The notes beneath the pieces are model-generated. The model saw nothing but the letters and a program-made list of their open reading frames with translations. It did not search any database and was not told the origin of the DNA. This document shows positions 6,119 through 8,981 of a stretch of 64,000 bases of DNA, piece by piece. This stretch comes from Bdellovibrio sp. GTDB lineage: Bacteria > Bdellovibrionota > Bacteriovoracia > Bacteriovoracales > Bacteriovoracaceae. The stretch spans positions 1-64,000 of the forward strand of contig JACPIU010000009.1 of assembly GCA_016187935.1 (NCBI GenBank), written 5' to 3'. Position numbers and translations under genes: made by a program. Within the stretch, counting starts at the first letter, position 1, and each line of letters starts with the position of its first letter.

Positions 6119-6150
6119 GTCTACCCTATAATTGCCATTATAGGGTAGAC
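6119..6150. promoter_or_regulatory. Perfect 14-bp inverted repeat directly before the arginine-deiminase-like gene
   Basis: GTCTACCCTATAAT (6119-6132) and its exact complement ATTATAGGGTAGAC (6137-6150) are separated by four bases. The second arm ends one base before the ATG at 6152. In RNA it would form a 14-bp hairpin that buries any ribosome-binding site of that ATG; in DNA it is a good operator for a dimeric regulator. There is no T-tract, so a simple terminator is unlikely. Confidence 0.7.
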
Positions 6151-6151
6151 A

Positions 6152-7861
6152 ATGTTTGATGCCCTTAAAAATGCCGATAAGAACATCATGATTTTGCGTT
6201 TTACCCTTGGCACGTTCCTTATTTGCTTAAGCTCTTCATCCTTCTGCCAATTAACTGACTGGTGGCCATTTCCTACTCGAACTTGTGAAGCGAGAACATC
6301 CTCAAGAATTCGTCCAGATATTTCCGTGCAAAATTTGGCCGATCATACCAACCGCTGCGGGGGGCGTTTCTATGAACAGTTCAACCATGCACCACTTAAG
6401 GAGCAGCATTCCTCGAATTACCAATGCCCTCCTGATCAGGGCCTACATTTTCTTGATCCTCGCTTTCCCGCCACAGGAGTGAATGTGAGTTTCGTTCCAC
6501 CCTTCCAAGGGGCCGATGCCCGTTTTGCGGGCAATACTCAATTTATTCGCGATCTGGTAGCGGCCATCAATCGTGCCGGGCCCAGTGTGCAGGTCAATAT
6601 TACGATTCAGCAAGATCAACTGGAAGTAGCGAGGCGGGAACTGGGTGACCAAATCTTAAATAATCCCAAGGTGCGTTTAATTCCTATGAATGCCAGTGTC
6701 AGCATGTGGCAGCAGGATACTTATGAGATGGCCTATCAAAATGGCCATCGCGGGGTCATCGATCTGCGTGTTGATGCCACTCGTGGTGATGATTTACCAA
6801 AGGCCATGGTCGATGCCTGCCAGGGCAATTCGCTCAACTTAATTCCGCCTCCCCCCACCATGGCGAAAGTTTTTGCTCCTAATCCCGGATGCGAAATCCT
6901 GGCCATGCGACTGGTAGGAAGCGCGGAGACGGCCCAGCGCCAATCCTATGCCGATTCCATCAAAAACAAGTATGGCAATGAATTTGGAACCTATGCTCAA
7001 AAGATTGCGGCAAGTGGCGTGCGCAAGATTGATTTGTCCCAGGCGTGTCCTATGGAAGAAACCATTCCTTCCTCTGATTTTGGCGGCAACATTGAACCTT
7101 ACCCTGGCGACTGGGTGCTCATGGGCAACAACATCGATGGAATGAATGATGAGAAAGGCATTGCCCCCTGGATGAAAGAACAGAATGTCGATATCCTCAA
7201 AGTTGAGGCGCGTTTTCTAAAAGTTGGCCATGTGGATGAAATTTATAATGTTGTTCACAACAACGACGCTCCTCCTTGCAATTTCGCCTTCATGTATAAT
7301 TCTCCCGCCAAGGGGCTGGCAAAATTGCAGGCGCGCAAAGATGCAGGTCACGGAAGCGAAAATTTTGGGGATGAGCAGGTGGAATTTCCTCCTCGAACCG
7401 TGCAGGATCGCTTAAGTGATCAGCGATTTCAAATTTACAACAAAGCGATTAACAAAATTGTAGAGCGAGATAAGGAACTTATTTTGAATAAGCTGAAAGC
7501 AAAATCGGGCTGCGCCAATCCCAAAGTAGTGGATTTGCCCTCATTGTACGAACCGGATAGTTTATTCAAGGCCACCTCCGTCAACCTCTCAAGTAGCGTT
7601 GACTCGATCGCCAATTCCTTGGCCGGATATCCCGGGGAATCGGTTTTGCCAAACTTAGTGAATTCCATTTCGGTCAATGGCAGCGTGATTGCTCCAGATC
7701 CGCACTACACACCCTTTAAGGATGAGGCGCAAGCCGCTTTTCAAGCGGGAAATGTCACGCCGGCCTTTGTTGATGACACTGTTTATCACAATGGCTATGG
7801 GGACATTCATTGTGGCACGAATATCATCAGAGACTGCATGTGGATTCCGGATTCCATCTAG
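6152..7861 (+). CDS. Exported protein-arginine deiminase homologue
   Basis: This 569-residue protein has the hallmarks of the C-terminal catalytic domain of protein-arginine deiminases, which turn peptidyl-arginine into citrulline. WQQDTYEM supplies Asp189, FGGNIE is the conserved glycine loop, VGHVDE supplies His360 and Asp362, and DIHCGTN near the C-terminus supplies the nucleophilic Cys554. These are in the same order as Asp350, His471, Asp473 and Cys645 of human PAD4. The N-terminal immunoglobulin-like domains of vertebrate PADs are absent. A hydrophobic stretch (FTLGTFLICLSSSSFC) is a signal peptide. It begins better from the ATG at 6188, which would also free the start from the hairpin at 6119-6150. 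The gene is a single unit. The family is rare in bacteria; substrate and calcium dependence cannot be told from sequence. Confidence 0.8.
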   Translation: MFDALKNADKNIMILRFTLGTFLICLSSSSFCQLTDWWPFPTRTCEARTSSRIRPDISVQNLADHTNRCGGRFYEQFNHAPLKEQHSSNYQCPPDQGLHFLDPRFPATGVNVSFVPPFQGADARFAGNTQFIRDLVAAINRAGPSVQVNITIQQDQLEVARRELGDQILNNPKVRLIPMNASVSMWQQDTYEMAYQNGHRGVIDLRVDATRGDDLPKAMVDACQGNSLNLIPPPPTMAKVFAPNPGCEILAMRLVGSAETAQRQSYADSIKNKYGNEFGTYAQKIAASGVRKIDLSQACPMEETIPSSDFGGNIEPYPGDWVLMGNNIDGMNDEKGIAPWMKEQNVDILKVEARFLKVGHVDEIYNVVHNNDAPPCNFAFMYNSPAKGLAKLQARKDAGHGSENFGDEQVEFPPRTVQDRLSDQRFQIYNKAINKIVERDKELILNKLKAKSGCANPKVVDLPSLYEPDSLFKATSVNLSSSVDSIANSLAGYPGESVLPNLVNSISVNGSVIAPDPHYTPFKDEAQAAFQAGNVTPAFVDDTVYHNGYGDIHCGTNIIRDCMWIPDSI

Positions 7862-8096: not shown

Positions 8097-8981
8097 ATGC
8101 GACATCTTTTAATGTTATTGAGTATATGTATTTTCCCAGGCCTATCTTTGGCAGCACCGCTTGAACCAAAGTTGCTCCAAAGTCCTTATCCTCATCAGGT
8201 TATGCTTGAATTACCTCTTGGATATAAGATGCTTGGTGTGCCCTCGCGCTCCTTCGCTTTGAACTTCAAAAAGGGCCAGAAACGTATCACCTTGGACGAC
8301 GTCTTTTTGTCCGCTGACCAGCGAAGTTTGATTGTGACTGGATTTATCCCAAGCAAAAGCGTTAAAGGCAAATACCGACTTTCGGGAATCTTTTATCAAT
8401 CAAGTACCGCCGATGGATATGGTATCCAAGGCAACTGTCAAGTTTGGTATTTCGACCCATTTGTTCTCTCCTGTTATGACAATGGAGATCTCTTGCCTTA
8501 CACTTATTCTCGACTCCCTCTCAAAGTCGAAGCACTTACCCCTGTGGCCCCGCCGATCCCTCGATATGAAAATCTTGTCATTACCGCCAAAGTTACCGAG
8601 CTAGCATCAGGGGAGCAGAAGGTTAAAGTATCGGTCTCCAGCTCCCCCATGCTTTTTGAGTACTATACCGACTATGTAGAGTTTGGGGATTACGCTCTCC
8701 GTGGAAATCATGCTTATTTTTACTCATCGTATCTCACTCACATTAATACGAATAAAAACATTCTAGAGATTGAACATCTTTTTAGTGCCACAACTCTGGA
8801 ACGGGAAACCGTCAGACTCAGAGGGCTTAAGCTTAAATCCCTTTCGGGGAGAAATAAGTACGGGCAGATCGTCGCCCTCAAATGTGACGAAAAATCAGGA
8901 AAATTGATCCTCACGCATGGAACTACGTTTGAGGTCAAGGAGCAAATGCCATTAGATTATCCATGTCCTGTCGTCGAATAA
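8097..8981 (+). CDS. Exported protein of unknown function
   Basis: This is a 294-residue protein. The ATG at 8097 is preferred over an upstream TTG at 8040 because it has a G-rich ribosome-binding site (GGGGG) and starts a clean signal peptide (LLMLLSICIFPGLSLAA). The mature part is rich in beta-branched residues and aromatic residues (Tyr, Phe), with a Cys pair (QVWYF...LSCYD) and another near the end, so a periplasmic or outer-surface beta-rich fold is likely. I do not recognise the family. It stands alone and converges on the papain-like lipoprotein gene. Confidence 0.6.
   Translation: MRHLLMLLSICIFPGLSLAAPLEPKLLQSPYPHQVMLELPLGYKMLGVPSRSFALNFKKGQKRITLDDVFLSADQRSLIVTGFIPSKSVKGKYRLSGIFYQSSTADGYGIQGNCQVWYFDPFVLSCYDNGDLLPYTYSRLPLKVEALTPVAPPIPRYENLVITAKVTELASGEQKVKVSVSSSPMLFEYYTDYVEFGDYALRGNHAYFYSSYLTHINTNKNILEIEHLFSATTLERETVRLRGLKLKSLSGRNKYGQIVALKCDEKSGKLILTHGTTFEVKEQMPLDYPCPVVE

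What the first reader, a model, noticed from the sequence alone, without database searches (positions are those of the whole stretch)
6152..7861. Bacterial exported protein-arginine deiminase homologue
All four catalytic positions of PADs are present in order (Asp189, His360, Asp362, Cys554), in a protein with a signal peptide and without the vertebrate N-terminal domains. Protein citrullination is scarcely known in bacteria outside the Porphyromonas enzyme, which is a different family. An exported PAD in a presumed predator could modify prey or surface proteins. The motif reading is direct; the activity is inference.
Basis: partly seen in the sequence, partly recalled or inferred. Interest (0 to 1): 0.75.

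Follow-up and report, generated by a model that had tools for sequence, protein, structure and literature searches.

The report
Exported, pared-down bacterial protein-arginine deiminase
This bacterial gene encodes a secreted, stripped-down relative of the human enzymes that turn arginine into citrulline in proteins; it belongs to a little-noticed family spread through the phylum of Bdellovibrio-like bacteria, in which the gene is often paired with a small secreted protein of unknown role.

Summary
The 569-aa ORF matches only Pfam PAD (PF03068, E 2.2e-24); its only PDB sequence hits are PAD1-4, and its AlphaFold model's top 50 PDB fold matches are all PADs. Profile alignment to human PAD4 places D189/H360/D362/C554 on D350/H471/D473/C645; W347 and the side-chain ligands of calcium site 1 are kept too.

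(1) PAD-family homologues are already recorded in 295 bacterial species, and a cyanobacterial one is active, so 'PAD in bacteria' is not new. (2) The window protein belongs to a distinct, fully supported clade of short exported PADs, almost all from Bdellovibrionota (61 of 369 phylum genomes carry a PAD). Its members lack PAD_N, PAD_M, calcium site 2, the R372/R374 substrate loop and the C-terminal WW tail, and have conserved extra cysteines. (3) In most soluble members, but not in the window, the PAD gene is followed, usually with a 4-nt overlap, by a small exported cysteine-bearing protein: 20 of 31 PADs against 4 of 290 neighbouring genes and 0 of 38 two-domain PADs.

Most likely: an extracytoplasmic, calcium-loaded peptidyl-arginine deiminase. 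Activity, substrate and any role in predation are untested. New variant of a known kind.

The parts
6152..7861 (+). ORF of the exported short PAD (569 aa as annotated; probable true start ATG 6188, Met13)
   Evidence: ORF; Pfam PAD 2.2e-24; PDB PAD1-4; fold; clade
6188..6250 (+). N-terminal signal peptide, residues 13-33 (MILRFTLGTFLICLSSSSFCQ); exact cleavage not predicted
   Evidence: sequence read directly; helix H10-30 in the model; no lipobox
6446..7831 (+). PAD catalytic domain (residues 99-560) aligned with human PAD4 from residue 297 on; no room for PAD_M before it
   Evidence: hhalign local alignment
6707..6718 (+). W186-Q187-Q188-D189: Trp347, Ca1 ligand Gln349 and catalytic Asp350 equivalents
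   Evidence: W and D invariant 36/36
6725..6727 (+). E192, Ca1 ligand (PAD4 Glu353)
6827..7066 (+). insertion between the catalytic Asp and the GGNIE motif (about residues 226-305), specific to the window protein, low model confidence
   Evidence: alignment; pLDDT
7082..7096 (+). GGNIE (residues 311-315), Ca1 region (PAD4 407-411, Glu411 = E315)
7229..7240 (+). H360-V361-D362-E363: catalytic His471 and Asp473 equivalents plus Glu474
   Evidence: H, D and E invariant 36/36
7808..7813 (+). H553-C554, nucleophile Cys645 equivalent
   Evidence: Cys invariant 36/36
7835..7837 (+). C562, clade-specific cysteine 8 residues after the nucleophile, in place of the WW tail of other PADs
   Evidence: absent only from L030
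6119..6150 (.). perfect palindrome GTCTACCCTATAATTGCCATTATAGGGTAGAC directly before the ORF; single copy in the genome, kept in both same-genus genomes where no PAD is present
8097..8981 (+). downstream exported ORFan (294 aa from ATG 8097), not related to the small partner found beside other PADs

Best explanation
The gene encodes a protein-arginine deiminase pared down to its catalytic domain and exported by the general secretory route to the periplasm, cell surface or medium. There it most likely hydrolyses the guanidino group of arginine in proteins or peptides, giving citrulline and ammonia, by the PAD mechanism: Cys554 attacks, His360 acts as general acid/base, Asp189 and Asp362 hold the guanidinium. 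Calcium outside the cell would keep site 1 (Gln188, Glu192, Glu315) filled, so the PAD_M/site 2 calcium switch of intracellular PADs is dispensable and has been lost. The R372/R374 loop that grips the substrate backbone in PAD4 is also gone in this clade, so the substrate range probably differs. In related genomes the soluble forms are made together with a small exported barrel protein, which I infer to be an inhibitor, chaperone or accessory subunit; the window copy has no such partner. Shown: family, fold, catalytic and Ca1 residues, absence of PAD_M, clade, partner linkage in relatives. Inferred: export, activity, calcium use, peptidyl substrate, partner's role.
For: Pfam PAD only, 2.2e-24; PDB sequence hits PAD1-4 only, 5e-11; AlphaFold pLDDT 78, pTM 0.76, with Foldseek best hit human PADI4 E 2.9e-21 and all top 50 PADs. 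Catalytic residues, Trp347 and Glu474 equivalents invariant 36/36; Ca1 Q349 kept in 34/36, E353 as E in 27 and Q in 8, E411 as E or D in 34/36. Near-invariant extra cysteines and signal peptides, lipoboxes or signal anchors in nearly all relatives fit an oxidising extracytoplasmic site. The clade stands apart from human and other two-domain PADs with 100/100 support. The Cyanothece PADI is active and calcium-dependent (PMC8826395).
Against: No activity data for any member of this clade. The calcium switch and the R374 contact that the known enzymes use are missing, so peptidyl-arginine as the substrate is not certain. The window protein sits on the longest end branch of the tree (1.58), carries an 80-residue insertion, lacks the partner gene, and is absent from both same-genus genomes, which would also suit a drifting or newly gained gene. 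The superposition of the catalytic residues in the model was not inspected in coordinates.
Confidence: 0.68

Rival explanations
1. A small-molecule guanidino hydrolase: an exported deiminase that acts on free arginine, agmatine or C-terminal arginine of peptides left by proteolysis, serving nitrogen supply or alkalisation instead of protein modification.
For: The PAD4 substrate-backbone loop (R372/R374) is missing in the clade; bacteria that digest prey or detritus release much peptide arginine (inference).
Against: Sequence and fold match PADs and not agmatine deiminase, arginine deiminase or PPAD; Trp347 is kept.
Confidence: 0.15
2. An antibacterial or prey-directed effector: the enzyme citrullinates proteins of other cells, and the small co-exported protein found beside related PADs is a self-protecting inhibitor.
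For: Overlapping partner gene in 20 of 31 PAD loci against 4 of 290 other genes; clear partner matches in the searched genomes lie beside PADs, none in nine PAD-less genomes; the anchored subclade has no partner.
Against: The window PAD has no partner; the partner model has no significant fold match, known inhibitors included; predation by this organism is unknown; no delivery system was traced.
Confidence: 0.2
3. A self-directed envelope enzyme that citrullinates the cell's own surface or periplasmic proteins and so lowers surface charge.
For: One subclade is anchored by lipobox or membrane segment, which keeps the enzyme on its own envelope.
Against: The window form is not anchored; no conserved gene neighbourhood links it to a particular envelope structure.
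Confidence: 0.2
4. A degenerating or non-catalytic PAD kept as a binding protein.
For: Longest branch in the tree, insertion, absence from the same-genus genomes.
Against: All catalytic and Ca1 side chains are intact, with no stops or frameshifts.
Confidence: 0.07

Closest known systems
Animal and clade A cyanobacterial PADI (PAD1-4, Cyanothece PADI)
   Same: Same catalytic fold, Asp/His/Asp/Cys, Trp347, Ca site 1; global profile alignment E 8.8e-57
   Different: No PAD_N, no PAD_M, no Ca2 and hence no calcium switch, no DSPRNR substrate loop, no C-terminal KWW tail; has a signal peptide and extra cysteines
Two-domain bacterial PADs (actinobacterial, myxococcal, Vibrio, Paenibacillus)
   Same: Same catalytic domain and residues
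   Different: They carry PAD_M or a comparable N-terminal region (mostly 180-260 residues before the catalytic domain) and the WW tail; separated from the short clade with 100/100 support; none has the partner gene (0/38)
Porphyromonas gingivalis PPAD / agmatine deiminase family
   Same: Exported bacterial arginine deiminase; shared wider guanidino-modifying fold (own knowledge)
   Different: A separate family; no Pfam or PDB match to it here; Cummings et al. find PPAD phyletically distinct from PADI

Membership tests
PAD catalytic-domain family (Pfam PF03068) | Profile match above the curated cut-off | tested here: met
   86.6 bits against 25
PAD catalytic-domain family (Pfam PF03068) | Catalytic Asp, His, Asp, Cys in register with human PAD4 | tested here: met
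PAD catalytic-domain family (Pfam PF03068) | PAD fold | tested here: met
   Foldseek E 2.9e-21, top 50 all PADs; TM-score by query length only 0.52, probably because the signal region and insertion do not align
PAD catalytic-domain family (Pfam PF03068) | Calcium site 1 side chains (Gln349, Glu353, Glu411) | tested here: met
   Q188, E192, E315
PAD catalytic-domain family (Pfam PF03068) | Calcium-dependent peptidyl-arginine deimination | not testable with these tools
   needs a biochemical assay
Animal/cyanobacterial three-domain PADI | PAD_N and PAD_M domains | tested here: not met
   only 98 residues, signal peptide included, before the aligned catalytic domain; no PAD_M hit
Animal/cyanobacterial three-domain PADI | Calcium site 2 and calcium switch (Glu351, Asp369, Ser370, Asn373) | tested here: not met
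   Glu351 is T190 and the loop is deleted or rewired
Animal/cyanobacterial three-domain PADI | Substrate-binding Arg372/Arg374 | tested here: inconclusive
   loop gapped in the clade; R211 of the window lies nearby but its register is uncertain
PPAD / agmatine deiminase family | Profile match to that family | tested here: not met
   no Pfam or NCBIfam match up to E 1

The most novel reading that the evidence does not exclude
Bdellovibrionota carry a previously undescribed extracellular citrullination system: a catalytic-domain-only PAD without calcium switch, which in soluble form is translationally coupled to a dedicated small exported barrel protein with one or two disulfides that controls it, and in anchored form stands alone.
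Probability: 0.35. Interest if true: 0.7.

Novelty: new variant of a known kind. Interest (0 to 1): 0.5.

Why it matters
If active, these would be PAD-family enzymes that work outside the cell without the PAD_M calcium switch: a minimal PAD in which calcium regulation and catalysis are separated by nature. It would put extracellular protein citrullination into a phylum known for predators and give a testable enzyme/partner pair. It also widens the known sequence space around the debated origin of animal citrullination.

Tried and rejected
Single-sequence scan of genome contigs found no relative; the protein is too divergent, and an alignment query worked. No phage match, and only two distant Streptomycetaceae plasmid matches. 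Literature searches gave no paper that treats PADs of Bdellovibrio-like or predatory bacteria (the few co-mentions come from unrelated papers, judged by title and abstract), nor PAD as a polymorphic toxin; only open PMC papers are held. The downstream window gene 8097-8981 was tested as the missing partner and rejected (hhalign probabilities 0.4% and 0.1%; no convincing relative in 192 phylum genomes). A partner elsewhere in the genome: one weak match (E 0.011) over the signal-peptide part only. The partner model gave no significant PDB match (best E 0.05), so the idea of a known inhibitor fold is unsupported. The palindrome as a dif site: no canonical dif in the genus and no clear skew switch in the window, so undecided.

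Full report
OBSERVATION. The ORF at 6152-7861 (+) is intact and encodes 569 residues. Against all of Pfam its one match is PAD, PF03068, E 2.2e-24, 86.6 bits with a cut-off of 25. NCBIfam has no model for it. Against the PDB by sequence it finds only PAD1 to PAD4 (best 5e-11). It is the only PAD in its 4.4-Mb genome.

CATALYTIC RESIDUES. Pfam's alignment covers only residues 262-562, so the first catalytic Asp needed a separate test. I aligned the window protein with 22 relatives from the phylum (A1) and compared it with a set of two-domain PADs that includes human PAD4 (PAD4 sequence taken from the alignment). The profile-profile alignment (local E 2.4e-41) starts at window residue 99 and PAD4 residue 297. 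The merged alignment gives W186=W347, Q188=Q349, D189=D350, E192=E353, E315=E411, H360=H471, D362=D473, E363=E474, C554=C645. Trp, the four catalytic residues and Glu474 are invariant in 36 of 36 clade members and 27 of 27 two-domain PADs. Calcium site 1 side chains are largely kept. Calcium site 2 is lost (Glu351 is T190; the Asp369-Asn373 loop is gapped) and the loop with substrate residues R372 and R374 is deleted or rewired in the clade. R211 of the window lies close by, but its register is uncertain.

STRUCTURE. AlphaFold2 on A1 gave pLDDT 78 and pTM 0.76, with confident blocks over the catalytic domain and low confidence in residues 30-87 and parts of 238-307. Foldseek against the PDB: best match human PADI4, E 2.9e-21; all of the top 50 are PADs. 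The coordinates could not be superposed residue by residue with these tools.

WHAT IS MISSING. Only 98 residues, signal peptide included, precede the aligned catalytic domain, so there is no room for PAD_M (about 175 residues) or PAD_N. By the merged alignment two-domain PADs have mostly 180-260 residues there and clade members 77-206. The clade also lacks the C-terminal WW tail seen in nearly all other PADs and has instead a cysteine eight residues after the nucleophile. Other cysteines are invariant (C376, C454) or nearly so (C69, C92). Together with signal peptides, lipoboxes or signal anchors in nearly all members, this fits an extracytoplasmic protein with disulfides.

DISTRIBUTION AND TREE. 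61 of 369 genomes of the phylum carry a PAD, and 14 control genomes have none. A scan with A1 gave named relatives, the best of them mostly Bacteriovoracaceae, Halobacteriovoraceae and Bdellovibrionaceae MAGs. A careful tree of 74 rows separates 37 short PADs, the window included, from human PAD4 and 36 other PADs with 100/100 support. The row on the short side that is assigned to Myxococcota (L038) is itself short and has a lipobox; L079 is titled Proteobacteria only. The window sits on the longest end branch; its best relative is 30% identical.

A PARTNER IN RELATIVES. In the soluble subclades the PAD gene is followed directly, often with a 4-nt overlap, by a gene for an exported protein of about 130-200 residues. 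By one fixed rule, 20 of 31 short PADs have it against 4 of 290 other genes in the same loci and 0 of 38 two-domain PADs; some loci are close relatives, so these are not independent counts. Fifteen of these proteins share four invariant cysteines (A3); six others keep the middle two (A4); the two groups align by profile with 90% probability. No Pfam family reaches its cut-off. The AlphaFold model (pLDDT 85) is an all-beta structure of about eight strands with no significant PDB match. Searched over 21 genomes, every strong match lies beside a PAD, and nine PAD-less genomes have none; the model was built partly from these genomes, so the specificity counts more than the sensitivity. The subclade with lipobox or membrane anchor (L003, L006, L011, L014, L018, L022, L025, L028, L040) has no partner. 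The window PAD has none either: its downstream neighbour (8097-8981) is an exported ORFan without relation to the partner, and the genome holds no clear copy elsewhere.

SURROUNDINGS. A perfect palindrome with 14-bp arms (6119-6150) ends 1 nt before ATG 6152 (RNA fold z -6.2). It occurs once in this genome and is found in the two other genomes of the genus, near the same acyltransferase-like gene, but followed there by other sequence; neither of those genomes has a PAD. So the palindrome is independent of the PAD at this site, and the PAD gene was gained here or lost in the others. This also makes ATG 6188 the likelier start.

WHAT IS KNOWN. Cummings et al. 2021 (PMC8826395) report PADI homologues in 295 bacterial species, describe the bacterial and fungal ones outside clade A as two-domain (PAD_M and PAD_C), and show that the Cyanothece enzyme is active and strictly calcium-dependent. 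The words Bdellovibrio, signal peptide and secreted do not occur in its main text. The literature searches turned up no paper on PADs of Bdellovibrionota.

VERDICT. A member of the PF03068 family and a new variant of it: catalytic-domain-only, exported, without calcium switch. Shown by computation: family, fold, residues, missing domains, clade, partner linkage in relatives. Inferred: export route, activity, calcium use, substrate, partner function. Not supported by any test here: a role in predation.

Noticed in passing
L076:4759-6651, L081:1692-3641, L099:4702-6651: Full-length two-domain PADs very close to human PADs (L076 protein vs PAD1 E 8e-124) in three separately assembled Methanophagales (archaeal) contigs with shared gene order (92-94% identity), beside a transglutaminase-family gene and, in L076, RrnaAD, FmdE and dihydroorotate dehydrogenase genes. 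Cummings et al. dismissed a Methanophagales hit as misattributed cyanobacterial DNA; three concordant loci argue against that and bear on the HGT story.
   Followed up: partly
6119-6150: Single-copy perfect palindrome with ATAA-N6-TTAT core, conserved near the same gene in two same-genus genomes with different DNA after it; could be a Xer/dif-like or integration site, operator or bidirectional terminator.
   Followed up: partly
266-2473: Exported 735-aa cysteine-rich protein with a DHG ... DHCNSGGG pattern like clan CD cysteine peptidases; no Pfam match above cut-off; a paralogue (71%) sits on contig C24 of the genome and a homologue (68%) in G040.
   Followed up: no
L125 (G040:C28:1-14000): Between the palindrome and the acyltransferase-like gene, the same-genus genome G040 holds a run of small phage-like genes with a packaging-ATPase-like ORF (judged by eye); the region may be an integration hotspot.
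   Followed up: no
L044:5239-6936 and L044:7666-9465: Two short PAD genes in tandem in one Bdellovibrionaceae MAG; genome G060 has four PAD genes.
   Followed up: no
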